Part shown: positions 9,574-22,710 of the stretch, piece by piece | How positions within the stretch are numbered: position 1 is the first letter of the stretch | Layout of the letters: the number at the start of each line of letters is the position of its first letter | IMG/VR virus record: IMGVR_UViG_3300050821_001858 | Location: 49,067-113,066 of that record | DNA: 64,000 nucleotides | Strand: one strand, 5' to 3' | Origin: a virus | The notes under the pieces: model-generated | Told to the model about the DNA's origin: nothing | The model's database searches: none | The model's input: the letters and a program-made list of their open reading frames with translations, nothing else | Made by a program: the position numbers and the translations under genes

Positions 9574-9623
9574 GATGTCTCGGGAGTGAGAGGGCGACAG
9601 TCGAAAATTTTTTGAAAAAATTC

Positions 9624-11015: not shown

Positions 11016-11029
11016 AAGAGGATAATGAA

Positions 11030-11271: not shown

Positions 11272-11275
11272 TTAT

Positions 11276-11354: not shown

Positions 11355-11358
11355 ATTA

Positions 11359-11424
11359 AATCCTAGAGTAAGTCCCCTTTGTTTTTCGACAAGGTGAGAT
11401 ATAACCATTGTAGCATCTAGGATT
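11359..11424 (+). ncRNA. 66-nt element closed by a 9-bp acceptor-like helix
   Basis: AATCCTAGA (11359-11367) pairs with TCTAGGATT (11416-11424), with an inner hairpin CCTTTG/CAAGG. It lies between two odd tRNAs; no T arm or CCA. Same style as 5380-5474. Confidence 0.35.
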
Positions 11425-11429
11425 ATTAT

Positions 11430-11528
11430 GCCTCGGTAGCTTAGAAAATAGAGCGCATCCCGTTTAATATTCATATGGTGGATATTGGGAGGGGTGAGAC
11501 GTAGGTGAAATACCTACCAGAGGCACCA
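11430..11528 (+). tRNA. tRNA-like gene with a greatly extended anticodon arm
   Basis: 99 nt, CCA encoded. Acceptor GCCTCGG/CAGAGGC (6/7), D stem GCTT/GAGC, T stem GTAGG/CCTAC with loop TGAAATA, as in the tRNA at 11276. Between D and T arms a stem ATCCC/GGGGT carries a further hairpin AATATTC/GGATATT. This may be a small intron or an enlarged arm. Isotype not assignable. Confidence 0.45.
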
Positions 11529-11543
11529 ACGATAGAGGATATT

Positions 11544-11729
11544 ATGGCACGCAAATCTTTTTTGGATTGTAAACATGAGAATGTTCAAGAGTTTACGGAA
11601 TGTTGTCTTGATTGTGGATATAATATTTGGACAACAAAAAAAGAATATCTGAAAGACCTTCAGCGACAAGCTGGTGGGAAAAACGTTGAAGAAATTCGAA
11701 AGCTTGAAAAACAGCTTGGAATAGGTTAA
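11544..11729 (+). CDS. Small zinc-knuckle-like protein
   Basis: 61 residues. CKH at residues 9-11 and CCLDC at 20-24 could bind one zinc; the C-terminal half is a charged helix. GATAGAGGAT precedes the ATG. The frame could extend upstream into the tRNA-like gene, but no ribosome site supports that. Confidence 0.5.
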   Translation: MARKSFLDCKHENVQEFTECCLDCGYNIWTTKKEYLKDLQRQAGGKNVEEIRKLEKQLGIG

Positions 11730-11730
11730 T

Positions 11731-11803
11731 GCGAGGTTAGTTTAGTGGCAGAATAGGCGCTTGATAGGCGTTTGGCTCGGGTTCGATTCCCGTACTCGCA
11801 CCA
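11731..11803 (+). tRNA. tRNA-Ile(GAT)
   Basis: 73 nt, CCA encoded. Anticodon stem GGCGC/GCGTT with loop TTGATAG, T arm CGGGTTCGATTCCCG; the acceptor has two inner mismatches. Confidence 0.85.
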
Positions 11804-11809
11804 TTTCAT

Positions 11810-11884
11810 GGACCAGTGGCTTGACGGGGAAGCAGTAGACTTTTAATCTTCGATATAGGGGTTCGAATCCCCTCTGGTCTTCCA
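11810..11884 (+). tRNA. tRNA-Lys(TTT)
   Basis: 75 nt, CCA encoded. Acceptor GGACCAG/CTGGTCT, loop CTTTTAA, T arm GGGGTTCGAATCCCC. Confidence 0.92.
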
Positions 11885-12014
11885 ATAGAATGCATTAGTA
11901 TATTCTACAGATATTAATGTGAAAAGTATACGGTTCCGGTTGCATGTTTTGTAGAGAGTATATTGTAAACGTAAAGGGGGACAGTCTTCAAAACGGGAAC
12001 CCAATAAATATCGA

Positions 12015-12254
12015 ATGCTAAGCGGATATGGGTTGACAACGGCTCACATTTTGTATAGAATACCGGACTACCAGAACATCCTTCAAACGTTTGTCTGGCA
12101 AGAATTTGACTTTCATCCTGAGTATCCTCATTTGAGGAAGTTTCTTGTCTTCTGGCATAAGAAGATTGAAGGACCGATCTTTAAGGTCGAAGTTGCTCAT
12201 GCTGGTTATGAAAACAAGATTGAACTTGCAAAGGATATCTGGAAATTACAATGA
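12015..12254 (+). CDS. Hypothetical protein, start uncertain
   Basis: Up to 79 residues. The downstream part (WQEFDFHPEYPHLRKFL, GPIFKVEVAHAGYENK) looks genuinely coding and overlaps the next gene by ATGA. A promoter-like TTGACA...TAGAAT lies across codons 7-16, so a shorter product from a later start is possible. Confidence 0.5.
   Translation: MLSGYGLTTAHILYRIPDYQNILQTFVWQEFDFHPEYPHLRKFLVFWHKKIEGPIFKVEVAHAGYENKIELAKDIWKLQ
12033..12061 (+). promoter_or_regulatory. Sigma70-type promoter inside the frame above
   Basis: TTGACA (12033-12038), 17 nt, TAGAAT (12056-12061). Confidence 0.5.
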
Positions 12255-12469
12255 ATATGATTAAAGATATAATTGAAGAGTTGTATGGAAATATGTTCGA
12301 TGCAACTAATACATCAACAATTTATGATTGGCGTAGTGCTTTTGAATATTATAAAGTAATAGGATATGATGAAATGAGATATCTGGATATACGACGATCA
12401 GAATTTTCCCAGATGCCCTTAGGGTATATGTGGAATAATCACGATAAGATTTTTAGATCAGTGGAATAA
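12251..12469 (+). CDS. 72-residue small protein (mini-protein set)
   Basis: ATGA-coupled to the gene before it. Helical (IKDIIEELYGNMF), Tyr/Trp-rich, ending DKIFRSVE. Function unknown. Confidence 0.55.
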   Translation: MNMIKDIIEELYGNMFDATNTSTIYDWRSAFEYYKVIGYDEMRYLDIRRSEFSQMPLGYMWNNHDKIFRSVE

Positions 12470-12470
12470 T

Positions 12471-12547
12471 GGACCAATGGCTCGATTGGAATGGCACGCC
12501 GCTCTTAACGGTTGTTTATAAGGGTTCGATTCCCTTTTGGTCCTCCA
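12471..12547 (+). tRNA. tRNA-Lys(CTT)
   Basis: 77 nt, CCA encoded. Acceptor GGACCAA/TTGGTCC, loop CTCTTAA, T arm AAGGGTTCGATTCCCTT. Confidence 0.9.
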
Positions 12548-12554
12548 TTTTAAT

Positions 12555-12629
12555 GCGTCTGGACGCTGCTAGTGTGGCGACTCCCCTGTCACGGGAGCGA
12601 GCGGGGAGCGTAACCCCGTAGACGCGCCA
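12555..12629 (+). tRNA. tRNA-Asp(GTC) with non-canonical T loop
   Basis: 75 nt, CCA encoded. Acceptor GCGTCTG/TAGACGC, anticodon stem CTCCC/GGGAG with loop CTGTCAC, T stem CGGGG/CCCCG but T loop AGCGTAA instead of TTCGANN. Confidence 0.85.
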
Positions 12630-12792
12630 ATTCCCCGTATCTCGCTAGTAGGTACAGCATTATATTGATTAGCTGGTACGTGGGATAAAACAGGTCACAA
12701 AGAGAGTTGAGAGCCTTTACATGTGACCCGTTGGATAAAAATGCTGATAGTTTATCGCAATGAATTGTGGCTCATGGTTTTATAGGTGATCA

Positions 12793-12978
12793 ATGATCCG
12801 TGATACGGAAGCTAGAGAAATTGAAAGATTGTATGCTGTCTATGCAAAGACTGTAGGGTATTTTGGAGAAGCTTTGAAGACTATACCTGATCATCCTTTG
12901 ACTTTTTTTCCTATTAAACCGTATCAACGTAGTATTAGAAGATACATACAAGAGACAATAAGTTATTTTTTTAGTTAA
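12793..12978 (+). CDS. 61-residue small protein (mini-protein set)
   Basis: Helical, with REIERLYAVYAK and the ending RRYIQETISYFFS. The ~160 nt upstream hold no gene, but carry AGTTGAGAG...CATGTGACC, also present at the start of the large RNA (9670-9714). Confidence 0.5.
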   Translation: MIRDTEAREIERLYAVYAKTVGYFGEALKTIPDHPLTFFPIKPYQRSIRRYIQETISYFFS

Positions 12979-12979
12979 A

Positions 12980-13056
12980 CAGGGCGTAGCTCAGTCTGGT
13001 AGAGTTCTCGTTTTGGAAACGAGCGGTCGCACGTTCGAGTCGTGCCGTCCTGACCA
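12980..13056 (+). tRNA. tRNA-Pro(TGG)
   Basis: 77 nt, CCA encoded. Acceptor CAGGGCG/CGTCCTG, anticodon stem CTCGT/ACGAG with loop TTTGGAA. Confidence 0.95.
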
Positions 13057-13076
13057 ATTATTCACCATAAAAATCT

Positions 13077-13150
13077 CAGGGAGTAGCTTAGTGGTAAAGT
13101 TCTCGCTTCGGAAGCGAGCGACAAAGGTTCGATTCCTTTTTCCCTGACCA
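13077..13150 (+). tRNA. tRNA-Pro(CGG)
   Basis: 74 nt, CCA encoded. Acceptor CAGGGAG/TTCCCTG, anticodon stem CTCGC/GCGAG with loop TTCGGAA, T arm AAAGGTTCGATTCCTTT. Confidence 0.95.
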
Positions 13151-13220
13151 TTTCATAAAAAGTTCCTCTAAATAAAAATCTTTTTTACTCGATTATTGCG
13201 ATTGCTAAGAGTTTTCTCCC

Positions 13221-13227
13221 CTAAATA
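13221..13227 (+). promoter_or_regulatory. Possible late promoter core (CTAAATA)
   Basis: CCTAAATA lies 31 nt before the ATG at 13258; same motif as at 3726 and 46846. Confidence 0.3.
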
Positions 13228-13257
13228 CTACGTCGAACACAAAGACGCGGAGGGAAA

Positions 13258-13617
13258 ATGAATTTAGATCAATATCAGCGCCTCTTTGTGATGTTAGAAC
13301 TAGTCTTACACGAACAAAGGGAGTTAAAGAAGATGGTAGTAGATTTTACAGCACTTATAAGCCAAGTTGCTAACACTGTTGGTGCAGAACAGTCAGCAAT
13401 TGTTGCAATTCAGGGTATCGCAGCAGAAATTCAGGCAGCAGTAGCTTCCGAAGATTCAGCAGCAGCAACCGAGATTGCATCTCTTGCATCTCAGCTTTCG
13501 GCTTCAGCTAATGCTCTAGCAGCAGCAGTTGCAACCACGGTTCCGGCTAACACTGTAAGTAACACTGTTGTTGCGAACACTGTTCCGGTTACCAATACCG
13601 CTCCGGTATCTAACTAA
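13258..13617 (+). CDS. Ala-rich coiled-coil protein with VANT/VSNT tail
   Basis: 119 residues: a helical N-terminal part (FVMLELVLHEQRELKKMV), a long Ala-rich stretch with heptad character (about 45-90), and a low-complexity tail of V-A-N-T, V-S-N-T and V-T-N-T units. The tail resembles the ends of both lysis enzymes and of the next gene. CGGAGGG precedes the ATG; a terminator follows. Possibly structural; no family recognised. Confidence 0.6.
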   Translation: MNLDQYQRLFVMLELVLHEQRELKKMVVDFTALISQVANTVGAEQSAIVAIQGIAAEIQAAVASEDSAAATEIASLASQLSASANALAAAVATTVPANTVSNTVVANTVPVTNTAPVSN

Positions 13618-13642
13618 TACGCCTTTCCAGGGCGTCGTGTTA

Positions 13643-13670
13643 GGGGGGCAGCAATGTCCCCCTTTCTTTT
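13643..13670 (+). terminator. Rho-independent terminator
   Basis: GGGGGGCA, short loop, TGTCCCCC followed by TTTCTTTT. Confidence 0.8.
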
Positions 13671-13685
13671 ATAAGGGAGATCAAG

Positions 13686-13877
13686 ATGCGAGATTTTCGT
13701 AGAGGAAGAGAATATGGGCGTGTTGAGATTGTGCAGGTTTCTGTTGCTAACACAGCCAATACTGCTAATACGACAAGTAACACTAGTACAACCACCAATC
13801 CTTTAGCTAACGTTGTAAATCAAGTAGCTAATGTGGGTAGTATCTTTTCAAGTTTAGGTAATCTATTCAAACGTTAA
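13686..13877 (+). CDS. 63-residue VANT-repeat protein
   Basis: Basic N-terminus (RDFRRGREYGR), then VANTANTANT and VNQVANVG units, and an amphipathic end SIFSSLGNLFKR that resembles the end of the M15 peptidase. GGGAGAT precedes the ATG. Confidence 0.5.
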   Translation: MRDFRRGREYGRVEIVQVSVANTANTANTTSNTSTTTNPLANVVNQVANVGSIFSSLGNLFKR

Positions 13878-13878
13878 T

Positions 13879-13969
13879 GCGCTTCGGTGTTGGACATGAG
13901 ATGGACTTATAAACCATTTTGCAGCGGACGGCTGTATCTAACTAGGTTCGAATCCTAGGAGGCGCACCA
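13879..13969 (+). tRNA. Atypical long tRNA, anticodon region TAT/ATA
   Basis: 91 nt, CCA encoded. Acceptor GCGCTTC/GAGGCGC, T arm CTAGGTTCGAATCCTAG, variable hairpin CAGC/GCTG. The anticodon stem ATGG/CCAT holds ACTTATAAA, so the anticodon is TAT (Ile) or ATA (Tyr). The D arm is reduced to TGT-TGG-ACA. Confidence 0.55.
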
Positions 13970-13976
13970 TTTTTCC

Positions 13977-14005
13977 TTGACTGGTAGGACTTAATCTGCT
14001 AGGAT
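13977..14005 (+). promoter_or_regulatory. Promoter of a leaderless gene
   Basis: TTGACT (13977-13982), 17 nt, TAGGAT (14000-14005). Only 6 nt separate the -10 from the ATG at 14012. Confidence 0.6.
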
Positions 14006-14011
14006 GGTATC

Positions 14012-14413
14012 ATGAAAGCTATGATGTCAATTGACCAATATGCTGATCCATTGCCCTTGTTGACAATGTTCGTGCATGGTTGCCCCCACAAGAGGGTTTA
14101 TCGTCCGTATCTTCAAAGGATGCGAGATGATTTCACACATTCGGCTCAGAGGCAACTTAAGTTGCCGTTCATCAAGAACGAGTATAATTCAGGTTATATG
14201 ATTGATTATCCTATCGATATTAACGTGGTCTATACTAATCCCATGAGTGAGGATATGGATCACTTGATGGAAGCATTGTATATGATCATGGATGGTCCTT
14301 CAGGTTCTTTGAAGGGTCCTTCAGTTCTAAAGGATGATCGATTGATCAAAGGTTTTTCTTGTCGGATATATTATCCCGAAGATAAAACCAAACGTGAAAC
14401 GGAGAGATGGTAA
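14012..14413 (+). CDS. RusA-like Holliday junction resolvase
   Basis: 133 residues. The C-terminal half fits the RusA pattern: a strand INVVYTNP, D-x-D-H-L-x-E-A-L (acidic residues for Mg), MDG, KDDRLIKGF and a final strand CRIYYPED. RusA dimers resolve branched DNA before packaging. The promoter's -10 lies 6 nt before the ATG with no ribosome site, suggesting a leaderless mRNA. The next gene overlaps by TAATG. Confidence 0.6.
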   Translation: MKAMMSIDQYADPLPLLTMFVHGCPHKRVYRPYLQRMRDDFTHSAQRQLKLPFIKNEYNSGYMIDYPIDINVVYTNPMSEDMDHLMEALYMIMDGPSGSLKGPSVLKDDRLIKGFSCRIYYPEDKTKRETERW

Positions 14414-14583
14414 TGGTAACATATGTTTATATTTTAGTATTCTGTGTTGCCACCAACTTTGCATCTTGTCAACCGATTAAAGTTTTTGCACATAGTTCGG
14501 GTTGTGTTGCAGAGATAAAATCTAATCCTATTTCAAGACACGGATACTATGATTGTTTTGAATTACAAGTACATGAGGATTAA
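14413..14583 (+). CDS. Small exported Cys-containing protein
   Basis: 56 residues with an N-terminal signal-like hydrophobic stretch (VYILVFCVATNFA) then four further Cys-spaced polar segments (SCQP, SSGCVAEI, YYDCFELQ). Similar in layout to the proteins at 21894 and 22218. Function unknown. Confidence 0.5.
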   Translation: MVTYVYILVFCVATNFASCQPIKVFAHSSGCVAEIKSNPISRHGYYDCFELQVHED

Positions 14584-14585
14584 TT

Positions 14586-14777
14586 ATGGGTTCAACATCA
14601 GCAGCAAAAAAGCGTTCCGACGCTTATCAATTTGGAGAACAAGCACGACATTTTTTCAAGACGTTTAATGGTAACAGGTTAGCCCAAGATGGTAAGCCTG
14701 TTCCTCACCCTAATGATCTTGAACAACGTAAACGTTTTCCAGAACGTAAACCTAAGAAAGCAAAACAGGAAGGTTAA
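14586..14777 (+). CDS. 63-residue basic protein
   Basis: Very basic C-terminus (RKRFPERKPKKAKQEG). Its TAA is nucleotides 8-10 of tRNA-Ser(CGA). Unknown function. Confidence 0.5.
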   Translation: MGSTSAAKKRSDAYQFGEQARHFFKTFNGNRLAQDGKPVPHPNDLEQRKRFPERKPKKAKQEG

Positions 14778-14854
14778 GTCGCCAGGGAGCGACCACGGCT
14801 TCGAACACCGTAGGTACCTAACGGTATAGGATTCGAGTTCCTCGCCTTCCACCA
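14768..14854 (+). tRNA. tRNA-Ser(CGA)
   Basis: 87 nt class II, CCA encoded. Acceptor GGAAGGT/GCCTTCC, D stem GTCG/CGAC, anticodon stem ACGG/CCGT with inner loop TTCGAAC and one C-A mismatch, variable hairpin TACC/GGTA. Confidence 0.82.
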
Positions 14855-14862
14855 TTTTTTCC

Positions 14863-14891
14863 TTGACAATTCAAGGAAACTCTGATACATT
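14863..14891 (+). promoter_or_regulatory. Sigma70-type promoter before tRNA-His
   Basis: TTGACA (14863-14868), 17 nt, TACATT (14886-14891), ending 8 nt before the tRNA. Confidence 0.55.
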
Positions 14892-14898
14892 CCATTAT

Positions 14899-14973
14899 GC
14901 TAGCGACCAAGGATTTGGGACCTCGGCTGTGAACCGGGCGTAAGTTGTGGCTTGACTCCACCCGCTAGTACCA
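14899..14973 (+). tRNA. tRNA-His(GTG)
   Basis: 75 nt, CCA encoded. Acceptor GCTAGCG/CGCTAGT, anticodon stem CTCGG/CCGGG with loop CTGTGAA; T loop CTTGACT departs from TTCGANN. Confidence 0.88.
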
Positions 14974-15000
14974 TTTTTCTCAAACCATGGAGTATATATT

Positions 15001-15258
15001 ATGACTATTACTGTTGCTGATTTGGTTCCGGGAGCGTTTTTGGTTAACGTCAATAATGATATTTTGGTTATTCTTGGACCGTCATCCAAAAAAGAAAATC
15101 ATCTGAAGGCTCTTCTTGTTGATAATTTGGGTGTTGAAGTTTCTCGATTTGAGATTAGTCATCTCGTTGAGGCTCTTAATACGAGTGAGATGCGTTTAGT
15201 TGATCTTGAGGAAGGGGAAAACGATATGCAGGAAGTATCAGAAACGGAAAAGGTTTAA
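15001..15258 (+). CDS. 85-residue protein, unknown function
   Basis: GGAGTATATATT precedes the ATG. N-terminal part reads like a small beta-barrel (VADLVPGAFLVNVNNDILVILG), with an acidic C-terminus. Confidence 0.55.
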   Translation: MTITVADLVPGAFLVNVNNDILVILGPSSKKENHLKALLVDNLGVEVSRFEISHLVEALNTSEMRLVDLEEGENDMQEVSETEKV

Positions 15259-15267
15259 TATAATAAA

Positions 15268-15355
15268 GGAAGGATGTGTGAGTGGTTTAAACAGCTACCC
15301 TGGAAAGGTAGTATACCGAGAGGTATCGTCGGTTCGAATCCGACTTCTTCCGCCA
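15268..15355 (+). tRNA. tRNA-Ser(GGA)
   Basis: 88 nt class II, CCA encoded. Anticodon stem CTACC/GGTAG with loop CTGGAAA; variable arm ATACCGAGAGGTAT; T stem GTCGG/CCGAC. Confidence 0.95.
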
Positions 15356-15366
15356 TTTAATAGAAT

Positions 15367-15454
15367 GGATAGTTGGCAGAGTGGATGATCGCACTTGTCT
15401 TGAAAACAAGCGTACCGAGAGGTACCGTGGGTTCGAATCCTACACTATCCGCCA
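15367..15454 (+). tRNA. tRNA-Ser(TGA)
   Basis: 88 nt class II, CCA encoded. Acceptor GGATAGT/ACTATCC, anticodon stem CTTGT/ACAAG with loop CTTGAAA; variable arm GTACCGAGAGGTAC. Confidence 0.95.
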
Positions 15455-15471
15455 TTTAAAAGAGACGTGAG

Positions 15472-16074
15472 ATGTTATTATATCATGGAACAAGTAAGAA
15501 ATTGGTTGATGATATTTTGAAAGAAGGTTTGAAACCTCGGGGAGAAGATAAAGGTAACTGGTACGTAAATAACATACCAAGCCATCCCGATTTAATATAC
15601 CTAACTGATCAGAAATGGCTAACGTATTTTTACGCTCTTAATTGTGCGGTTAATACAATGTCAAATGGAGGGTGTCTTCTTACAATTGATACTGAATTTC
15701 TTGACGAAGATAAGTTTCGGATTGACGAAAATTACTACACCGAAATTGAATTGGATCGAACAAATGCTACTAATAAGGCTGTTCCTTTTGAAATACGATA
15801 TGATCAATTAGATAGAATAGCATCAGATAAACGTTGGAAAGAATCGTTATCTGTATGTAATGCTTGTTCTTTTAAAGGGGTCATTCCTCCGACAGCTATT
15901 ATAAGTACTGATTATGTCGATAATGAATGGAATCCTCTTTTTAGAAAAGAGTTTGTGGCTTCTTCAGATGTAGAAGCTAATTTAGCAACAATTAAAGTTG
16001 TTTTGGACACTACAGGAGTTTTCATAAATACCAACACAGGTGAATGCTGTTGGGAAGATAGAATTTCAACTTGA
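15472..16074 (+). CDS. ADP-ribosyltransferase-fold-like protein
   Basis: 200 residues. LLYHGTSKKLVDDILKEGL at the N-terminus matches the H-G-T motif that opens ART-like folds (KptA/Tpt1, PARP, DarT relatives), and DLIYLTDQ a little later resembles their second NAD-site strand. The catalytic third residue is not clear. KptA-type enzymes remove RNA 2'-phosphates and DarT/ART types modify nucleic acid or protein; which applies is unknown. It lies within the tRNA array, between tRNA-Ser and tRNA-Met. Fold assignment is from motif only. Confidence 0.5.
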   Translation: MLLYHGTSKKLVDDILKEGLKPRGEDKGNWYVNNIPSHPDLIYLTDQKWLTYFYALNCAVNTMSNGGCLLTIDTEFLDEDKFRIDENYYTEIELDRTNATNKAVPFEIRYDQLDRIASDKRWKESLSVCNACSFKGVIPPTAIISTDYVDNEWNPLFRKEFVASSDVEANLATIKVVLDTTGVFINTNTGECCWEDRIST

Positions 16075-16131
16075 CCACGGATGTACTGGCAAGTTAGTTG
16101 GGGAGTTGGAAGCCCTTACAAACCGTTTATA

Positions 16132-16207
16132 GCGCGGACAAGCTTCGGTAGGCTGGCATGTCTCATAAGCATGTGTAAAGTGGGTTCGACCCCCACCTGC
16201 GCAACCA
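16132..16207 (+). tRNA. tRNA-Met(CAT), copy 1
   Basis: 76 nt ending CCA. Anticodon stem CATGT/GCATG with loop CTCATAA, T arm GTGGGTTCGACCCCCAC, acceptor about GCGCGG/CTGCGC. Initiator, elongator or Ile2 type not decided. Confidence 0.85.
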
Positions 16208-16223
16208 AAATAAAGGATATATC

Positions 16224-16454
16224 ATGTATGATGTAGGTTTCAATTGGAAATCTGAGTTTAAGAATGAGATGATATATATTCCTCCAAAAATAAAGAGACA
16301 CATAACAATAAAATATCGATTACCGTTTGAAACAGGTTGTGCTTCTTGGAGATGGTATCATAAGTTTCTTCATACACACGAAGATAAAATGATATTTCCT
16401 GTTATGTGTGATACAAATGAAATCCTTATGGAAAAAGGATTGGTAATGTGTTAA
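16224..16454 (+). CDS. 76-residue protein, unknown function
   Basis: AAGGATATATC precedes the ATG. Aromatic/basic, with CASWRWYHKF; otherwise featureless. Possibly of the mini-protein set. Confidence 0.5.
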   Translation: MYDVGFNWKSEFKNEMIYIPPKIKRHITIKYRLPFETGCASWRWYHKFLHTHEDKMIFPVMCDTNEILMEKGLVMC

Positions 16455-16463
16455 AAGGAGAGT

Positions 16464-16721
16464 ATGATGAAGTGGTTTATGCTTGAAGGAAAGTATTGCG
16501 TTTTGTTTTATATCATGATGGCAATCTGCTTCCAGATGGGTTATTTGTCTGGCATTGGTTTCCTCACAGTTTTATCATCGATCCTTTGGACTGTGGTTAT
16601 CCTTTTTGGATGTGTATTGTTATCGTCCTATCTTATGGTTTTAGATTATAAGAAATATCGAGCAGCGCAAATTCTTGCGGCTCAAGAGGAACGGGATTTA
16701 AAAGAGCAGGCGGGAGAATAA
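16464..16721 (+). CDS. Two-TM membrane protein
   Basis: 85 residues, membrane segments about 10-30 and 34-56, then a cytoplasmic basic/acidic tail (DYKKYRAAQILAAQEERD). AAGGAGAGT precedes the ATG. Unknown function; holin-like topology. Confidence 0.6.
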   Translation: MMKWFMLEGKYCVLFYIMMAICFQMGYLSGIGFLTVLSSILWTVVILFGCVLLSSYLMVLDYKKYRAAQILAAQEERDLKEQAGE

Positions 16722-16723
16722 TA

Positions 16724-17380
16724 ATGCGTAAGATTTTGGAGATATCGCAGGCAGAGGGCGGGGAAGACTCCCGTTTATTTGCGCACGACCTTTTTAATGC
16801 CTATCGTAAGCTATGCGAGCGCATGGGTTGAAGAGGTACCCCCGTAGGGGAACTTATTTTACAGATTGACAACTGTGATGATCGCATATACAATGAGATC
16901 GGTGGTCATCGAATTCAACGTGTCCCCCCGACAGAAAGACGGGGACGTGTTCATACGTCTACTGTTACAGTGTCGGTGACTGATGAATTGAAAAATGACT
17001 TTAAGATCAATGAGAAGGATTTGAAAGTTGACTGGTTTTCGGGGTCCGGTAAAGGCGGCCAACATCGTAATAAACATCAAAACTCCTGTAGACTTACTCA
17101 CATACCTACAGGAATTACTCAAAAAGCCGAAGCTAGAGATCGACAAACGTCTTATCGCGAAGCATTTCAGGCATTATCTTCACTTCTACAATCTAGCCGG
17201 GCGTATCAGGCGACCGTTAGCCAAAGCAACATTCGACGGGACCAGATGGGCAGTGGAATGCGCGGTGACAAAAGAAGAACCTATCGCTTCCAAGATAACA
17301 TTGTAACGGATCATGAATTAGGTACAAAGAGTACTTGTATTGATCTAATGAATGGAAAGTTTGAAAAGATATGGTCATAA
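16724..17380 (+). CDS. RF1-like peptide chain release factor with in-frame UGA at codon 36
   Basis: Reading through TGA at 16829-16831 gives 218 codons homologous to RF1 domains 2-4 without domain 1. Before the TGA: the LEISQAEGGEDSRLFAHDL segment; after it: GGHRIQRVPPTERRGRVHTS (P-P-T at the RF1 PxT codon-recognition site) and SGSGKGGQHRNKHQNSC with the catalytic GGQ. The TGA falls where RFs have Trp (ERMG-W), and both sides are in the same frame, so UGA readthrough or a disabling mutation, not an RF2-style +1 shift, is indicated. RF1 does not read UGA, so expression would depend on host RF2. It could alternatively be expressed only from a later start. GGGAGAATA precedes the ATG; the next gene overlaps by 10 nt. 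Confidence 0.75.
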
Positions 17381-17550
17381 CACATGAATATTATGAGACA
17401 GAGAATGTCAAAGAACGTGCACTTGATGTATTATTGAATGTATTAGGAGCGAATATCTATAGGTCTATAGGACGTATCTTTCCTATTGTTCCTGACATGT
17501 ATTCTTATAATCATTATGTTACTATAATAGAAGAAATAATGCGGGTATAG
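17371..17550 (+). CDS. 59-residue small protein (mini-protein set)
   Basis: ATG lies inside the end of the release factor gene. Helical and Tyr-rich, ending VTIIEEIMRV. Its TAG is nucleotides 8-10 of tRNA-Gly(GCC). Confidence 0.5.
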   Translation: MVITHEYYETENVKERALDVLLNVLGANIYRSIGRIFPIVPDMYSYNHYVTIIEEIMRV

Positions 17551-17615
17551 CATAACGGTTTATGTGCCTGATTGCCAATCAAGCGTAGTGGGTCCGACTC
17601 CCTCTGCCCGCACCA
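17541..17615 (+). tRNA. tRNA-Gly(GCC)
   Basis: 75 nt, CCA encoded. Acceptor GCGGGTA/TGCCCGC, loop TTGCCAA on stem CCTGA/TCAAG, T loop TCCGACT. Confidence 0.9.
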
Positions 17616-17625
17616 ATTTTACCCC

Positions 17626-17654
17626 TTGACAACATGAAAGTAATGAGGTAGATT
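17626..17654 (+). promoter_or_regulatory. Promoter of a leaderless gene
   Basis: TTGACA (17626-17631), 17 nt, TAGATT (17649-17654), then 6 nt to the ATG at 17661. Confidence 0.6.
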
Positions 17655-17660
17655 GCAAAA

Positions 17661-17831
17661 ATGTCTGAAGAAGCGAGAGATATGAATAACTACAAGCCTT
17701 ACAGGACGAAGGCTCAGAAAGCTGAAGCCCGTCGTCTAGCCGTCAAGATTGACGGTCGTTGGGTGTCGTCTGCCCCTGTTTCGCGTCATGCGAGCAAGGA
17801 ATTAACCATTGATGTACCGGAGGAAAAGTAA
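17661..17831 (+). CDS. 56-residue basic protein, leaderless start
   Basis: MSEEARDMNNYKPYR then RTKAQKAEARRL, basic and soluble. No ribosome site; the promoter ends 6 nt before the ATG. Linked to the next gene by TAATG. Confidence 0.5.
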   Translation: MSEEARDMNNYKPYRTKAQKAEARRLAVKIDGRWVSSAPVSRHASKELTIDVPEEK

Positions 17832-18049
17832 TGTCGGAAATGGCATGCCCCGCTGAAAAACTCAAGTGGGGCGACGAGGTTCGGCTTAAGACCGATGAAA
17901 AGTCCAAGGGTTTGATCGTTGATGTGCAGAAAGATGCCACAACGGGTAAGCCGGATTATTTTGAGGTTGACTGGAAAACCGGTCAAAAGACGATGATTTA
18001 TCACAAGGATCAACTGCTTCTTTTGAAGCCTTCGTTTGATAGGAGCTAA
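17831..18049 (+). CDS. 72-residue small beta-barrel-like protein
   Basis: The sequence (LKWGDEVRLKTDEKSKGLIVDVQ...YFEVDWKTGQ) has the spacing of an SH3/KOW-like barrel. Function unknown; begins on the previous stop. Confidence 0.5.
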   Translation: MSEMACPAEKLKWGDEVRLKTDEKSKGLIVDVQKDATTGKPDYFEVDWKTGQKTMIYHKDQLLLLKPSFDRS

Positions 18050-18050
18050 C

Positions 18051-18290
18051 ATGTTCCGCATGTTAATACGATACTTCAAAGAGTACATTGGTTATTATCG
18101 TCCTAGTCGTGTCGATATGATCATCAATAGATCGATCCAGGCAAAGATTGATCCGAATTTGTTTAAAGACTTTGTTGAGGAAATGCAAAAGCTTCAAGTG
18201 CCGCCTGTGCATATGGCAGCTACACATAAACCGCGTTTCACATCGAGTGATGGTGTGATGACCGATTTGGTCACTGGTGAAGTTTTGTAA
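18051..18290 (+). CDS. 79-residue protein, unknown function
   Basis: ATG after TAGGAGCTAAC. N-terminal amphipathic basic helix (MFRMLIRYFKEYIG), C-terminus SSDGVMTDLVTGEVL. No family recognised. Confidence 0.5.
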   Translation: MFRMLIRYFKEYIGYYRPSRVDMIINRSIQAKIDPNLFKDFVEEMQKLQVPPVHMAATHKPRFTSSDGVMTDLVTGEVL

Positions 18291-18294
18291 TTCT

Positions 18295-18369
18295 GGGGGT
18301 TTCTTCTATCGGCTAGGAACCTCGCTTCTCAAGCGAGTAAGACGGGTCCGACTCCCGTAACCCCTACCA
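18295..18369 (+). tRNA. tRNA-Glu(CTC)
   Basis: 75 nt, CCA encoded. Acceptor GGGGGTT/AACCCCT, anticodon stem CTCGC/GCGAG with loop TTCTCAA. D and T arms resemble tRNA-Glu(TTC) at 8092. Confidence 0.93.
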
Positions 18370-18382
18370 AGGTTAAGGAAAG

Positions 18383-18649
18383 ATGAACGACGTGTTTGTG
18401 AAAACTTTCATTATGGGACGTATGTTGGACAAGATAGTGGAATTTGTTCCATTGTCTGAAAGACAACTGCTATTGATTACTAATCAACCGCCCCCTAATT
18501 TTATTCAATCTAGGGCTCCTAATAAGGTTATATTTCTTTCTCAAGGAGGAAAGATAAACATCATACCGACTGGCATGATCCAACATTGGACCTGGGCTGG
18601 TTCGAGGGCTCTAAAAGCTTATACAACAAAATGGTTTGCGTATGAATGA
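18383..18649 (+). CDS. 88-residue protein, unknown function
   Basis: AAGGAAAG precedes the ATG. Middle part ITNQPPPNFIQSRAPNKVIFLSQ; no family recognised. Overlaps the phosphatase gene by 8 nt. Confidence 0.5.
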   Translation: MNDVFVKTFIMGRMLDKIVEFVPLSERQLLLITNQPPPNFIQSRAPNKVIFLSQGGKINIIPTGMIQHWTWAGSRALKAYTTKWFAYE

Positions 18650-19337
18650 TCTAACTGTAAAGAATTTTACGTATGTGGTCGGAGATATCCATGGGATGTA
18701 TGGCCAGATGCATCAATTGGTCGAGGCTTGTCTGGGACATGCCAAACATTATTCAATGCATCCGAAATTTGTATTTCTTGGAGATTATATTGACCGCGGA
18801 CCAAAGTCAAAAGAAGTTATCCAATACTTAATCGATTTCCCCCATGATAAAGTTTGTCTCATGGGAAACCATGAAGATATGTGTCTTGATTGGGGTAATC
18901 AGAGTATGTGGAGAAATAACGGTGGTATGAAGACCGAAGAATCATACCTACCGCAAGGTAGGGTATTGGATGAACATAGAGAATGGATGCGTCGCCTACC
19001 CCTTATTCATGAGGATGCACACCGCATTTATGTTCATGCTGGTTTAAATGATCAATGGTCATTAAAAGAACAGGTAAGAAAGGATATGCTTTGGATTAGA
19101 AATGCTTTCCTTTTGTCTGATCATGATTGGGGTAAACTTGTGGTTCATGGGCACATGCCCTACGATCCTAAAGATTTCCCTCAGTGGGGAATTGATAAGG
19201 TTCGTCTTAATCTTGATACTGCTTGTGTGTATGGTGGTTCTTTGACCGCTGCCTTCTTTAATGATGAACAGCGTAATCCCATCGGATACATTCAAGTTGA
19301 AGCTGATAACGTCAACAAGTATACTCAAGGAGTATAG
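18642..19337 (+). CDS. Serine/threonine (PPP-type) protein phosphatase
   Basis: 231 residues, lambda-phosphatase type. The metal-binding PPP signatures are all present: GDIHG (14-18), GDYIDRG (47-53), GNHE, and VHGH near residue 165. Two metal ions hydrolyse phosphoserine/threonine, and in this subgroup sometimes phosphotyrosine or cyclic nucleotides. The substrate is unknown; phages use such enzymes to alter host phosphorylation. A second, distinct metallophosphoesterase is at 26911. Confidence 0.92.
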   Translation: MNDLTVKNFTYVVGDIHGMYGQMHQLVEACLGHAKHYSMHPKFVFLGDYIDRGPKSKEVIQYLIDFPHDKVCLMGNHEDMCLDWGNQSMWRNNGGMKTEESYLPQGRVLDEHREWMRRLPLIHEDAHRIYVHAGLNDQWSLKEQVRKDMLWIRNAFLLSDHDWGKLVVHGHMPYDPKDFPQWGIDKVRLNLDTACVYGGSLTAAFFNDEQRNPIGYIQVEADNVNKYTQGV

Positions 19338-19338
19338 A

Positions 19339-19479
19339 ATGGACACCGCAGTTCTTAATAAAGTTGATCAAGAATTTGAATATCGTAAGAAGCGTATCAT
19401 TGATGATTTGCGTCGTCGGGGTCGTTCCGAAGAAGATATTCAAGCCCATTTGAAATGGATGGAAGAAAACCGAGATTAA
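19339..19479 (+). CDS. 46-residue charged helical peptide
   Basis: AAGGAGTATAG precedes the ATG. Highly charged (FEYRKKRIIDDLRRRGRSEEDI), probably one long helix. Lies directly upstream of the RNase P RNA. Confidence 0.5.
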   Translation: MDTAVLNKVDQEFEYRKKRIIDDLRRRGRSEEDIQAHLKWMEENRD

Positions 19480-19506
19480 TACGTATACTACCTCTGCGTA
19501 TTAAAG

Positions 19507-19865
19507 TTATAGACGGACTATCGCTGTACACCTATATGGGCTACCTTCGGGTACTGTACAGAGGAAAGTCGGGGCTGCACACGAAACCGTACAAGGTAAC
19601 ACCTTGGTATTCATAACTGCCACGCTTTTATGAATGACGATTAGAGCAACAGAAAATATGTATGCTTTATATACATGCCTAGATAGAGTGGGATAAACTT
19701 GTATATAAAGGCGTAGTGAAATTGGCAATCTCTACGGGCAGCAATCCCTAATAGGTCACTAGCCTTCGTGGGCGTTACGGTGACGGGTCGGGAGCTAGAG
19801 GGTAATCGCGAGGTTACTCCCAGATAAATGATAGTACTTGACAGAACCCCGCTTATAGTCTATAA
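19507..19865 (+). ncRNA. rnpB: RNase P RNA (catalytic M1-like RNA)
   Basis: About 359 nt. P1 closes the ends perfectly: TTATAGAC (19507-19514) with GTCTATAA (19858-19865). The universally conserved blocks are in order: GAGGAAAGTCGGGGCT (19561), AGAGCAACAGAAAATA (19643), and AGATAAATGATAG...GACAGAACCCCGCTTATAG (19823-19857), the classic 3' block. P3-like hairpin TACC-TTCG-GGTA sits at about 19542. The L15-like segment reads GGGATAAAC rather than the usual GGTAAAC, which could change pairing with the tRNA 3' CCA. No promoter is obvious just upstream. RNase P removes 5' leaders of tRNAs; a protein subunit gene is not seen in the window, so the host RnpA may be used. Confidence 0.95.
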
Positions 19866-19908
19866 TGCTACTACCTTAGAATGACCATGATATTGAACGT
19901 AACAATTT

Positions 19909-19931
19909 GGGGCAGTTGGTCGAGCCCCCCT
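19909..19931 (+). terminator. Hairpin downstream of the RNase P RNA
   Basis: GGGGC, 10-nt loop, GCCCC, but only a weak T run after it. Possible 3' boundary. Confidence 0.35.
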
Positions 19932-19948
19932 TGAATTAAAGGTGATAT

Positions 19949-20140
19949 ATGAAGATTAATCTATTTGCTGCTGCTTTTCTTGTTACCATGGCTTTATTGA
20001 TTTTTAAAGCATTAGGTTATATTACCATTGGATGGTTTTGGGTATTCTTGCCCCTTATCATTGGATTTGGATTTTGGATTTTGGTTTTGTTCTTTTGGAT
20101 TGGAATATTTATTTTGGCTGCTATCTTTAGTAAAGATTAA
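19949..20140 (+). CDS. Two-TM membrane protein
   Basis: 63 residues, almost entirely hydrophobic (segments about 4-24 and 28-58) with a short SKD tail. Unknown function. Confidence 0.55.
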   Translation: MKINLFAAAFLVTMALLIFKALGYITIGWFWVFLPLIIGFGFWILVLFFWIGIFILAAIFSKD

Positions 20141-20141
20141 T

Positions 20142-20222
20142 GCACGCATAACCCCCTCGTCTTCGAAACGAGAGAAAGGTAACTGGATGTAAATGGGGGT
20201 TCGAATCCCTCTGCGTGCTCCA
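20142..20222 (+). tRNA. tRNA-Arg(TCG) lacking a D arm
   Basis: 81 nt, CCA encoded. Acceptor GCACGCA/TGCGTGC, anticodon stem CTCGT/ACGAG with loop CTTCGAA, T arm GGGGGTTCGAATCCCTC. Only about 6 nt (TAACCC) lie between acceptor and anticodon stem, and about 22 nt (with GTAACTGGATGTAAAT) lie between anticodon and T arms. Confidence 0.75.
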
Positions 20223-20223
20223 T

Positions 20224-20301
20224 GGTTTCTTAGCTCAGTTGGAATAGAGCATCGCCCTGCGAAGGCGAAGGTCATCGGTTCGAGTCCGATAGAAACCTCC
20301 A
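20224..20301 (+). tRNA. tRNA-Arg(GCG)
   Basis: 78 nt, CCA encoded. Acceptor GGTTTCT/AGAAACC, anticodon stem TCGCC/GGCGA with loop CTGCGAA, canonical D and T arms. Confidence 0.93.
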
Positions 20302-20320
20302 TTTTATAAAGGGAGATGAT

Positions 20321-20848
20321 ATGACAGGTGAATATAATTATAAAGGTGATTACGGTGCTATTGCGGATCGACCAATCGATTCAGCTACTTGGACTGGTGA
20401 AGACACTAGTAAGTATCCGGTAGCGAATGCTGTTTATATCAATACCAATCCTGTTGGTACTAGTAATGTAATGCTTGAAACTACTCAAGATACAAAGTAT
20501 CAACAGTTTGAAGATGAAATACGGGCACTAATCAACAAACTATCACTTGAAGGTAATTCAAATACGCCTGATTTTATTCTCGCTGAGTTTCTGACAAACT
20601 GTCTTAAGGATTGGGATAGTGTTTCCTCTTATGAACAGTTTATGGATAGCGATGAAGTCCTTTGGGACTATCTGTGGCTTGCTCGCAGAACATTTCGAAA
20701 CACAAAGACTGTTCGTGCCAAGTGGTATATGCCGGTTATCGCTGAAAAGATAGCTTCGTCTTGGTGGAAAAAGTTGTATGTTTTCTGGGGAAGGCTTTGG
20801 GTTGCTTACCTAAATAATGGTAACTATAGTGATGCCTGGAAAAAGTAA
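20321..20848 (+). CDS. 175-residue protein, unknown function
   Basis: AAGGGAGATGAT precedes the ATG. Polar N-terminus with KYPVANAVYINTNPVGTSN (VAN-type motif seen elsewhere), a helical middle (YQQFEDEIRALINKLS), and a Trp-rich C-terminus (SSWWKKLYVFWGRLW). No family recognised. Confidence 0.55.
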   Translation: MTGEYNYKGDYGAIADRPIDSATWTGEDTSKYPVANAVYINTNPVGTSNVMLETTQDTKYQQFEDEIRALINKLSLEGNSNTPDFILAEFLTNCLKDWDSVSSYEQFMDSDEVLWDYLWLARRTFRNTKTVRAKWYMPVIAEKIASSWWKKLYVFWGRLWVAYLNNGNYSDAWKK

Positions 20849-20852
20849 TTAT

Positions 20853-20929
20853 TGGGGAGTAGGCTACGTTGGCTAAACCGCTTGGCTCTGAACCATGAGT
20901 AGAAGGTTCGACACCTTCCTCCCCATCCA
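20853..20929 (+). tRNA. tRNA-Gln(CTG)
   Basis: 77 nt, CCA encoded. Acceptor TGGGGAG/CTCCCCA, loop CTCTGAA, T arm GAAGGTTCGACACCTTC. Confidence 0.9.
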
Positions 20930-20937
20930 TTTTTCTC

Positions 20938-20966
20938 TTGACATTCGAGGGAGATAAGTATACAGT
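20938..20966 (+). promoter_or_regulatory. Sigma70-type promoter before tRNA-Cys
   Basis: TTGACA (20938-20943) with TATACAGT (-10 between 20959 and 20966), 8 nt before the tRNA. Confidence 0.5.
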
Positions 20967-20973
20967 AGATAAT

Positions 20974-21047
20974 GTCCTGTTGGCAGACCGACGATGCAAC
21001 GGATTGCAACCCCGTTAAAGCTGGTTTAATTCCGGCACAGGACTCCA
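20974..21047 (+). tRNA. tRNA-Cys(GCA)
   Basis: 74 nt, CCA encoded. Acceptor GTCCTGT/ACAGGAC, anticodon loop TTGCAAC (one mismatch closes the stem), T stem GCTGG/CCGGC with loop TTTAATT. Confidence 0.88.
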
Positions 21048-21054
21048 CTTTAAT

Positions 21055-21137
21055 GGTCTAGTAACCGGTTCGGGTTTCTACCCCGCTATCCGTAATTGGA
21101 GTTGTAAATGCGGGTTCGAGCCCTGCCTAGATCGCCA
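21055..21137 (+). tRNA. tRNA-Arg(TCT) lacking a D arm
   Basis: 83 nt, CCA encoded. Acceptor GGTCTAG/CTAGATC, anticodon stem CGGG/CCCG with loop TTTCTAC, T arm GCGGGTTCGAGCCCTGC. As in tRNA-Arg(TCG), no D arm precedes the anticodon, and GTAATTGGAGTTGTAAAT lies between anticodon and T arms. Confidence 0.7.
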
Positions 21138-21153
21138 TTTTAGGAGGTATATT

Positions 21154-21315
21154 ATGAAAGATGTTGATGCTGATCTTACCGAAGCATTATCGATTATCGC
21201 TGGTTTAATGTATTATGTTTCTGGTCATGATCTACGAGAAAGAGAAGCAAAGATTTTGAAAGAGTATTGCAATCGTGCTAATTCTCTTAGACAAAAGTAT
21301 CAAACGCTTTCTTAG
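21154..21315 (+). CDS. 53-residue protein
   Basis: TTAGGAGGT precedes the ATG, one of the best ribosome sites in the region. Helical and charged (LREREAKILKEYCNRANSL). Its TAG is nucleotides 8-10 of the next tRNA-Gly. Confidence 0.6.
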   Translation: MKDVDADLTEALSIIAGLMYYVSGHDLREREAKILKEYCNRANSLRQKYQTLS

Positions 21316-21381
21316 TTCAACCGGAGAGAATAGTTGTTTCCTAAACTTCAGATTTGGGTTCGAGTCCCAAGGAAAGCACCA
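21306..21381 (+). tRNA. tRNA-Gly, probable anticodon TCC, 8-nt loop
   Basis: 76 nt, CCA encoded. Acceptor GCTTTCT/GGAAAGC, T arm TTGGGTTCGAGTCCCAA, stem AGTT/AACT with loop GTTTCCTA. The final A of CCA is the first base of the next ATG, and the acceptor supplies AAGGA as its ribosome site. Confidence 0.7.
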
Positions 21382-21710
21382 TGACTAGATTAGAGAAGAT
21401 TGATGCGTTTTATGCGGTTGCTTTTATTGGTATTATGATCTATGTTTTTTGGTTTTATGTTCCTATGCAGTCTCATAGTTATTACATTCAAGGAACATTT
21501 GACGGTAAAGTTGGTTTAATAATGAATAGTCCTTTCATAGTTAAAGAACTTTGTGAGGATGTTGCTAAAGAGGCTCAAGCCGAAGTTGATTTGAATAAAC
21601 TGAGCATCTATATGATCCCTATAGAAGATCGTACTGATGTAATGAAAGAAGCTTTGAAAACTGATATCAAGATATCTTGTGTTTCAAAGAAACCGATTAT
21701 GGAAAGTTAA
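21381..21710 (+). CDS. Membrane-anchored protein, unknown function
   Basis: 109 residues: one membrane segment (about 11-32), then a soluble exterior domain with two Cys (LCEDVAKEA, ISCVSKK). The ATG overlaps the CCA of the upstream tRNA; its TAA is nucleotides 8-10 of tRNA-Ser(GCT). The gene is therefore clamped between two tRNAs. Confidence 0.6.
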   Translation: MTRLEKIDAFYAVAFIGIMIYVFWFYVPMQSHSYYIQGTFDGKVGLIMNSPFIVKELCEDVAKEAQAEVDLNKLSIYMIPIEDRTDVMKEALKTDIKISCVSKKPIMES

Positions 21711-21787
21711 ATCGCCAGGGCGCGATACCCGATTGCTAATCGGAGGGAACCGAAAGGTTTGAGTTTCGAGTACTCAGCTTTCCGCCA
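21701..21787 (+). tRNA. tRNA-Ser(GCT)
   Basis: 87 nt class II, CCA encoded. Acceptor GGAAAGT/GCTTTCC, D stem ATCG/CGAT, anticodon loop TTGCTAA, variable arm AACCGAAAGGTT. Confidence 0.9.
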
Positions 21788-21791
21788 ATAC

Positions 21792-21866
21792 GCGATGCTT
21801 GTATAGAAGGATATGCCCTAGGTTTCCACCCTAGAGAGACTGGATCGTTACCAGTGCATCGCTCCA
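21792..21866 (+). tRNA. tRNA-Gly(TCC)
   Basis: 75 nt, CCA encoded. Acceptor GCGATGC/GCATCGC, anticodon stem CTAGG/CCTAG with loop TTTCCAC, T stem ACTGG/CCAGT with loop ATCGTTA. Confidence 0.88.
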
Positions 21867-21893
21867 TATTAACCCTAACAGAGGATTATTATT

Positions 21894-22202
21894 ATGAGTT
21901 TAACAGGTATGATTTTAGGTTGTGTGCTTGCCGCTGGTGGCAATGCTCCGGTGGATTGTGGTTCTGATACTGATTTGGTATTGGCTCGCTCTAAGCCAGA
22001 TGTTTTTGCAACATTAAATGATTGTAATGAGGAATCTGGTCAGTATGTAGCTGAGATGGTAAGCCCCGTTGCTCGCCTTATGTATGGGGTACCTCCTGAA
22101 GTAAACGTAATCTATTATCGTTGCCTGGACGGTGATAAGGTAGTTTATGACTCTCTTACTCAGGGGAAGAATATTCTCGACCAAGATAATGATTCGAAAT
22201 AA
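21894..22202 (+). CDS. Exported small protein, paralogue 1
   Basis: 102 residues with a short signal-like N-terminus (GMILGCVLAAGG). Shared with the next gene: T-G-x-I-L-x-C at the start, a Cys-acidic middle, and D-K-V-V-Y-D/N-S-L near the end. AGAGGATTATT precedes the ATG. Function unknown. Confidence 0.6.
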   Translation: MSLTGMILGCVLAAGGNAPVDCGSDTDLVLARSKPDVFATLNDCNEESGQYVAEMVSPVARLMYGVPPEVNVIYYRCLDGDKVVYDSLTQGKNILDQDNDSK

Positions 22203-22217
22203 GAAAGGAAACATATC

Positions 22218-22544
22218 ATGCTTACAGGTGTTATTCTTGCGTGTGCCGTTAGTTTAGCTAACCCTTCAATCAACGCTGTTGATCCTGAGAATTGTATGCC
22301 GATTTGGTCATATTCTTCTGATCCTTTGGCTTTTGAAGATGTGGATGAATGTCAATCAGAATCAAGGGATTTTCTTGAACAACTTGCACAGAGCGACGAT
22401 ATTCGAAAGCATTTGAATGCTCCTACTGTCCGTACATTGAATAATGGTAGCATTCCAGTTTATTTCTTTGTTTGTAAAGACAAGGATGAGAAAGTAGTTT
22501 ATAACTCCTTGAAGAATGCTCAAGATAATAACAAGGATCAATAA
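22218..22544 (+). CDS. Exported small protein, paralogue 2
   Basis: 108 residues, tandem relative of the preceding gene (TGVILACAVSLA start, YFFVCKDKDEKVVYNSL end). AAAGGAAAC precedes the ATG. The pair probably arose by duplication. Confidence 0.6.
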   Translation: MLTGVILACAVSLANPSINAVDPENCMPIWSYSSDPLAFEDVDECQSESRDFLEQLAQSDDIRKHLNAPTVRTLNNGSIPVYFFVCKDKDEKVVYNSLKNAQDNNKDQ

Positions 22545-22558
22545 ATAGAGAGAGTTAT

Positions 22559-22629
22559 TGGGGTGACCAGAAGTTGGAACGGTGCCTTTGAAGCATCGGA
22601 GTAGGGGGCAGTACCTTACACCCCATCCA
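22559..22629 (+). tRNA. tRNA-Gln(TTG)
   Basis: 71 nt, CCA encoded. Acceptor TGGGGTG/CACCCCA, anticodon stem GGTGC/GCATC with loop CTTTGAA; T loop GGCAGTA, the same unusual loop as in the tmRNA T arm. Confidence 0.85.
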
Positions 22630-22634
22630 GTTAT

Positions 22635-22710
22635 GGCGGTATAGCTTAATCGGCTAGAGCGGGCGTCTCATAAGCGTCAGATTCGGGTTCGATCCCCGGT
22701 TCCGCTACCA
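22635..22710 (+). tRNA. tRNA-Met(CAT), copy 2
   Basis: 76 nt, CCA encoded. Acceptor GGCGGTA/TTCCGCT, anticodon stem GGCGT/GCGTC with loop CTCATAA, T loop TTCGATC. Confidence 0.9.

What the first reader, a model, noticed from the sequence alone, without database searches (positions are those of the whole stretch)
19507..19865. Phage-encoded RNase P RNA
All conserved RNase P RNA blocks are present in order and P1 closes with 8 perfect pairs. A catalytic tRNA-processing RNA on a phage genome is very unusual and fits its large, odd tRNA set. The L15-like segment differs from the usual GGTAAAC, hinting at altered CCA recognition.
Basis: partly seen in the sequence, partly recalled or inferred. Interest (0 to 1): 0.92.

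Follow-up and report, generated by a model that had tools for sequence, protein, structure and literature searches.

The report
Phage-encoded RNase P RNA ribozyme
A bacterial virus related to T4 carries its own copy of the catalytic RNA that trims transfer RNAs, inside an array of about 30 of its own tRNA genes, and similar virus-borne copies turn up in dozens of other viral contigs, so some phages seem to bring the trimming tool for the tRNAs they bring.

Summary
Window 19505-19871 (+) matches Rfam RF00010 (class A RNase P RNA) end to end: 167.8 bits, cut-off 100, E=2e-52. All conserved blocks, P1-P5, P7-P12, P15-P18, the P4 helix with its bulged U and a perfect 6-bp P6 pseudoknot are present; P13/P14 are absent. 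The carrier is a 113-kb T4-superfamily phage contig (gp20, gp23, gp32, gp41, gp43, UvsX) with ~30 tRNAs encoding CCA, a permuted tmRNA and GOLLD RNA; a second contig is identical over 6.8 kb.

It is not alone. 33 further IMG/VR virus records of 54-463 kb hold RNase P RNA-like sequences (29 above the cut-off), mostly in tRNA arrays (22 of 30 non-redundant within 200 nt of a tRNA; bacterial rnpB 1 of 120). Twelve form a viral clade. None of 25 records tested encodes RnpA. Most likely it is an active ribozyme that borrows host RnpA to mature phage tRNAs. Activity is inferred. I found no published report in the open library and no cultured phage with it.

The parts
19505..19871 (+). RNase P RNA gene (class A core, no P13/P14)
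   Evidence: RF00010 167.8 bits, E 2.3e-52, full-length
19506..19514 (+). P1, 5' strand (pairs with 19858-19866)
   Evidence: 9 pairs, 8 Watson-Crick
19858..19866 (+). P1, 3' strand
19561..19570 (+). CR-I GAGGAAAGUC (start of catalytic core)
   Evidence: sequence, model alignment
19566..19574 (+). P4, 5' strand with bulged U19569; second pair after the bulge is G-C instead of the usual bacterial C-G
   Evidence: 8/8 pairs; all P4 pairs kept in 25/25 viral RNAs, pair 19571-19850 as GC 14, CG 9, UG 1, AU 1
19847..19854 (+). P4, 3' strand
19580..19585 (+). P6 pseudoknot, 5' strand CACGAA
   Evidence: perfect complement of the P17 loop; not part of the covariance model
19765..19770 (+). P6 pseudoknot, 3' strand UUCGUG in the loop of P17 (19762-19764/19771-19773)
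19785..19788 (+). L15 GGGU, pairing site for tRNA 3' CCA, intact
   Evidence: aligned to consensus CGGGU
19800..19819 (+). P18 with GCGA (GNRA) tetraloop
   Evidence: 8 pairs
19838..19866 (+). 12/12 sigma-70 promoter match TTGACA-17-TATAAT overlapping the 3' end of the RNA gene; may drive the genes downstream
   Evidence: one of 3 perfect matches in the window and 4 in the contig
5302..22710 (+). tRNA array in which the RNase P RNA lies (30 ARAGORN tRNAs, 29 with encoded CCA, all + strand)
10395..10889 (+). GOLLD RNA in the same array
   Evidence: RF02032 174.5 bits
42436..42812 (+). permuted, alphaproteobacterial-type tmRNA, tag VASNDNFARELALAA
   Evidence: RF01849 92.2 bits, ARAGORN

Best explanation
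The locus makes a catalytically competent RNase P RNA of bacterial class A. In the infected cell it binds the host's RnpA protein and cuts the 5' leaders off the phage's own tRNA precursors (and probably its tmRNA), keeping tRNA maturation going when the tRNA load is high and host transcription is shut down. Shown: the family membership, the intact core, the phage context, the tRNA array, the wider viral set. Inferred: transcription, binding of host RnpA, activity, and the benefit.
For: Full-length RF00010 match; P4, P6, P1, L15 and P18 intact. Across 25 distinct viral RNAs the pairs of P2, P4, P5, P7 and P8 are kept in nearly all sequences through changes on both sides, so selection keeps the fold. 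The carrier is a T4-superfamily phage with ~30 tRNAs encoding CCA, 22 of 30 with T at -1. RNase P-bearing virus records hold 11-68 tRNAs (median 29.5), control virus records a median of 3 (p=3e-7). Viral RNase P RNAs lie within 200 nt of a tRNA in 22 of 30 cases against 1 of 120 bacterial rnpB. RnpA is absent from this contig and from 24 other records, while the same search finds it in 10 of 14 control genomes.
Against: No expression or activity data. The RNA is on a long branch (0.66), so some function could be lost. In this window the nearest tRNA is about 270 nt away, not abutting. The contig is incomplete, so an RnpA elsewhere cannot be excluded. Hosts already have RNase P, so the need is not shown.
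Confidence: 0.75

Rival explanations
1. The phage RNA is active but serves mainly phage-specific substrates (atypical tRNAs, tmRNA, GOLLD or polycistronic tRNA transcripts) that the host enzyme cuts poorly.
For: Odd tRNA-like gene at 20142-20219 with no normal D-arm, permuted tmRNA and GOLLD with an internal tRNA-like segment in the same genome; its shape differs from the canonical alphaproteobacterial RNA, which scores 226-338 bits in almost all of 107 genomes.
Against: L15 GGU and core are canonical; the tRNAs look ordinary with CCA and mostly U at -1.
Confidence: 0.13
2. It is a decoy: it ties up host RnpA (or host pre-tRNAs) and so inhibits host RNase P.
For: No phage RnpA; the RNA could compete for host RnpA.
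Against: A decoy need not keep P4, P6 and L15, yet these are kept with compensating changes; the location in the phage's own tRNA array argues for helping tRNA maturation.
Confidence: 0.05
3. Recently captured host gene without function (decaying cargo).
For: Long branch; lower score than most alphaproteobacterial RNAs.
Against: All helices are kept, P4 and P6 carry compensated changes, there is no close bacterial relative (aligned identity about 70-76%), and related viral RNAs form an old clade.
Confidence: 0.05
4. Assembly chimera: host rnpB joined to a phage contig.
For: Metagenome-derived record.
Against: A second contig (L010, 81,843 bp, a record of its own) is 100% identical over 6,767 bp including the RNA and flanking tRNA array; the gene lies inside an array of same-strand tRNAs with phage genes on both sides.
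Confidence: 0.02

Closest known systems
Bacterial class A RNase P RNA (rnpB; Rfam RF00010), especially the shortened form of Burkholderiales, Omnitrophota and some Alphaproteobacteria (Enterousia)
   Same: All conserved blocks, P1-P5, P7-P12, P15-P18, P6 pseudoknot, L15 GGU; the same GATTAGAGC...GCAATCTCTACG variant around P10-P12
   Different: On a phage genome in a tRNA array, no RnpA gene; P4 second pair flipped C-G to G-C (8 of 42 viral RNAs with this exact motif and others with variants; not among the listed bacterial P4 motifs); own P6 sequence; long AU-rich P12; about 70-76% aligned identity to the nearest bacterial RNAs
Other viral RNase P RNAs found here in IMG/VR (e.g. L038 463 kb, L065 456 kb, L024 317 kb, L315/L376 332 kb, L005 181 kb)
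   Same: Class A core, phage-size contigs, many tRNAs, no RnpA in those tested
   Different: Most of those with the GATTAGAGC variant form a separate viral clade (support 0.94), many with tRNA-Gly directly downstream; the window RNA lies outside it
Phage tRNA arrays, phage tmRNA and GOLLD (huge phages, PMC7162821; mycobacterial phage-derived arrays, PMC6582537)
   Same: tRNAs with tmRNA or GOLLD in mobile or phage DNA
   Different: No phage RNase P RNA found in the passages read; PMC7162821 does not mention RNase P
Minimal archaeal (Pyrobaculum) RNase P RNA
   Same: Some of the other viral RNAs (L129, 192 nt; L538; L539) seem to have lost most of the specificity domain, as Pyrobaculum has (PMC4919922)
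   Different: The window RNA keeps its specificity domain; the short viral ones keep bacterial sequence blocks

Membership tests
Bacterial class A RNase P RNA (RF00010) | Covariance score above the curated cut-off | tested here: met
   167.8 vs 100 bits, full length
Bacterial class A RNase P RNA (RF00010) | P4 helix with bulged U in the catalytic core | tested here: met
   8/8 pairs, U19569 bulged
Bacterial class A RNase P RNA (RF00010) | P7-P11 specificity domain | tested here: met
   P7 5/5, P8 5/5, P9-P11 paired in the model alignment
Bacterial class A RNase P RNA (RF00010) | P6 pseudoknot (class A mark) | tested here: met
   CACGAA/UUCGUG 6/6 in the P17 loop; shuffle chance of any 6-bp match in the two segments is 0.11, so the evidence rests on its place and on covariation among viral RNAs
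Bacterial class A RNase P RNA (RF00010) | L15 GGU for CCA pairing | tested here: met
   GGGU 19785-19788
Bacterial class A RNase P RNA (RF00010) | P13/P14 (common, not required) | tested here: not met
   43 model positions skipped with no residues; PMC8172020 notes that P13/P14 are often missing, so this does not exclude membership
Bacterial class A RNase P RNA (RF00010) | Cleavage of pre-tRNA 5' leaders | not testable with these tools
   needs a biochemical assay
Complete bacterial RNase P holoenzyme encoded by the phage | RnpA protein gene | tested here: not met
   no PF00825 match in the 113-kb contig or in 24 other virus records; contigs may be incomplete
T4-superfamily phage | T4-type capsid, portal and replication genes | tested here: met
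   portal 552 bits, major head 537 bits, DNA polymerase 919 bits, UvsX, gp41, gp46/47, gp32, gp59; gp23 about 60% identical to cyanophages and others

The most novel reading that the evidence does not exclude
RNase P RNA is a long-standing viral gene family: many tRNA-rich large phages carry it inside their tRNA arrays, where the flanking tRNAs are its substrates, so its own cleavage at the next tRNA frees its 3' end. Within this viral branch the RNA has changed the catalytic helix P4 and in some lines lost the specificity domain, which would make phages a second place where minimal RNase P RNAs arose.
Probability: 0.5. Interest if true: 0.93.

Novelty: new variant of a known kind. Interest (0 to 1): 0.82.

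Why it matters
RNase P RNA is a nearly universal cellular ribozyme, and a virus carrying it extends phage translation kits from tRNAs and tmRNA to the processing enzyme itself. It makes testable whether phages replace host tRNA processing during infection, whether they do so with host RnpA alone, and how far the RNA can change when the cell's own copy keeps the host alive.

Tried and rejected
Assembly chimera: rejected (identical second contig). Altered CCA recognition from L15: rejected. Cultured phages with RNase P RNA: seven probes against INPHARED gave only contaminants or prophage flanks: 'Microcystis phage MaAM05' carries fliM, fabI, glyS and looks bacterial; 'Acinetobacter phage MD-2021a' is a prophage integrated beside what looks like a host rnpB; a Salmonella genome; two unannotated 'Bacteriophage sp.' faecal contigs (MT835553, MT836823) were not examined. 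Terminase searches as a virus test were uneven (PF03237 2 of 25, phrog_2 11 of 34), in part because contigs are fragments. The pattern AGATNAATG...ACAGAACC gave many chance matches. Short IMG/VR contigs with very high scores (L002-L004, L067, L078) are likely bacterial or prophage flanks and were not counted as phage. A covariance model of my own was not built, because a model over 300 positions would exceed the calibration limit. The single-sequence minimum-energy fold does not reproduce the family structure; I relied on the model alignment and covariation.

Full report
Observation. The window is part (49067-113066) of a 113,066-bp virus record. At 19505-19871 on the + strand Rfam's class A RNase P RNA model matches over its full length with 167.8 bits (cut-off 100, E 2.3e-52). 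Mapping the model structure on the sequence gives 78 standard pairs and 6 non-standard ones. Two features that the model does not score as pairs are also there: P4 with 8 of 8 pairs and the bulged U, and the P6 pseudoknot, CACGAA with UUCGUG in the loop of P17. Other viral RNAs have other P6 pairs at the same place (GAGCAG/CTGCTC, GAACAG/CTGTTC, AAGCA/TGCTT, GGAC/GTCC), so P6 covaries; by shuffling, any one of these matches alone is weak evidence.

The L15 remark. In the model it lies 3' of P12; here it reads GGCAATC (19724-19730). The same variant occurs in many Burkholderiales, Omnitrophota and a few Alphaproteobacteria. The L15 GGGU at 19785-19788 is canonical, and 29 of 30 phage tRNAs encode CCA. 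Nothing points to altered CCA recognition.

The carrier. The contig holds T4-type portal, scaffold and major head protein, a phage DNA helicase, gp46/47, gp43, UvsX, gp41, gp32, gp59, ribonucleotide reductase and baseplate genes. The head protein is about 60% identical to cyanophage and other T4-like proteins. An 81,843-bp record (L010/G006) is 100% identical over the 6,767 bp compared and has the same GOLLD score and tRNA number. The RNA lies inside a same-strand tRNA array (5302-22710). A permuted alphaproteobacterial-type tmRNA is at 42436-42812. An alphaproteobacterial host is a guess from the tmRNA and the weak tree placement.

Relatives. Pattern scans of IMG/VR and RF00010 searches of whole records find RNase P RNAs in 33 further virus records of 54-463 kb, 29 of them above the cut-off; one of them (G006) is the same phage as the window. 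The 34 records hold 11-68 tRNAs each, median 29.5, against a median of 3 in 19 control virus records that came from chance pattern matches. The control set is not matched for phage type. Of 30 non-redundant viral RNAs, 22 have a tRNA within 200 nt and 17 within 15 nt, often on both sides, with the order tRNA-Cys, RNase P RNA, tRNA-Gly recurring. Of 120 bacterial rnpB loci, 1 does (Fisher p about 1e-18). I counted the 30 by hand, leaving out identical or near-identical copies and short contigs that look bacterial; relatedness among the viral loci makes the p-values too small. In a FastTree tree twelve viral RNAs form a clade (0.94), and the window RNA is on a long branch by itself, weakly beside the Enterousia-like Alphaproteobacteria (0.88). 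With 294 columns the deep branches are uncertain.

Conservation. In 25 viral RNAs every P4 pair is standard in all 25, with four pair types at 19571-19850. The CGGGG/CCCCG form of P4 is found in 8 of 42 viral RNAs with this exact motif, and not among the bacterial motifs listed. This points to selection for pairing over a long time in viruses.

Mechanism. The RNA very likely folds as a normal class A RNase P RNA and needs the host's RnpA in the cell, since no RnpA gene is found in 25 virus records. Its substrates would be the phage pre-tRNAs, most of which have U before the cleavage site (22 of 30), a feature that RNase P favours (established knowledge). In phages where the RNA abuts a downstream tRNA, RNase P cleavage of that tRNA would form the ribozyme's 3' end; this is inference. 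In this window the nearest downstream tRNA-like gene starts about 270 nt away, so that step is not claimed here. A perfect sigma-70 promoter match overlaps the 3' end of the gene (19838-19866). Its -35 element is partly fixed by the conserved GACAGAA, and three other perfect matches exist in the contig, so its use is open.

Literature. The open library gave no report of phage-encoded RNase P RNA. The huge-phage paper PMC7162821 mentions tmRNA, not RNase P. The rnpB annotation papers PMC7191817 and PMC2996960 do not mention viruses. The library lacks most subscription papers and preprints, so priority is not established.

Verdict. Identity as an RNase P RNA on a phage genome: about 0.98. Active ribozyme serving phage tRNAs with host RnpA: about 0.75. 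It is a member of a known RNA family in a new setting, with a wider viral branch that seems undescribed.

Noticed in passing
L129:1954-2107 (-), L538:1104-1261 (-), L539:2264-2438 (-); also L100, L040: Very short viral RNase P-like RNAs (192 nt for L129) that keep CR-I, CR-V and most or all of P4 but have only small hairpins in place of the specificity domain, and lie in tRNA arrays (L129 flush between tRNA-Phe and tRNA-Lys). L129, L100 and L040 are below the RF00010 cut-off (58-85 bits); L538 and L539 were not scored.
   Followed up: partly
L376, L378, L379, L380, L381, L383 (viral RNase P RNAs): A viral subgroup reads GAGGAAGTTC/CCCGGCTA instead of GAGGAAAGTC/CCCGGCTTA in P4: a change in the near-universal catalytic core that can still pair.
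   Followed up: partly
window 20142-20219: tRNA-like gene with CCA, apparent anticodon TCG, no normal D-arm and a long variable region; found by Rfam (34.7 bits), missed by ARAGORN.
   Followed up: no
window 10395-10889: GOLLD RNA with an internal tRNA-His-like segment (no CCA) inside the tRNA array; among RNase P-bearing records only G004 and the identical phage G006 also have GOLLD.
   Followed up: partly
window 42436-42812: Permuted alphaproteobacterial-type tmRNA with tag VASNDNFARELALAA on a T4-like phage.
   Followed up: no
window 19838-19866: Perfect TTGACA-17-TATAAT promoter match made from the conserved 3' end of the RNase P RNA gene.
   Followed up: partly
MW495066.1 (L255): 'Microcystis phage MaAM05' appears to be bacterial chromosome DNA (fliM, fabI, glyS), probably misfiled as a phage.
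   Followed up: no
window 27465-33161: Cytidylyltransferase-like, SIS-domain, transaldolase, glycosyltransferase and GHMP-kinase genes close together: a possible sugar-nucleotide pathway on the phage.
   Followed up: no
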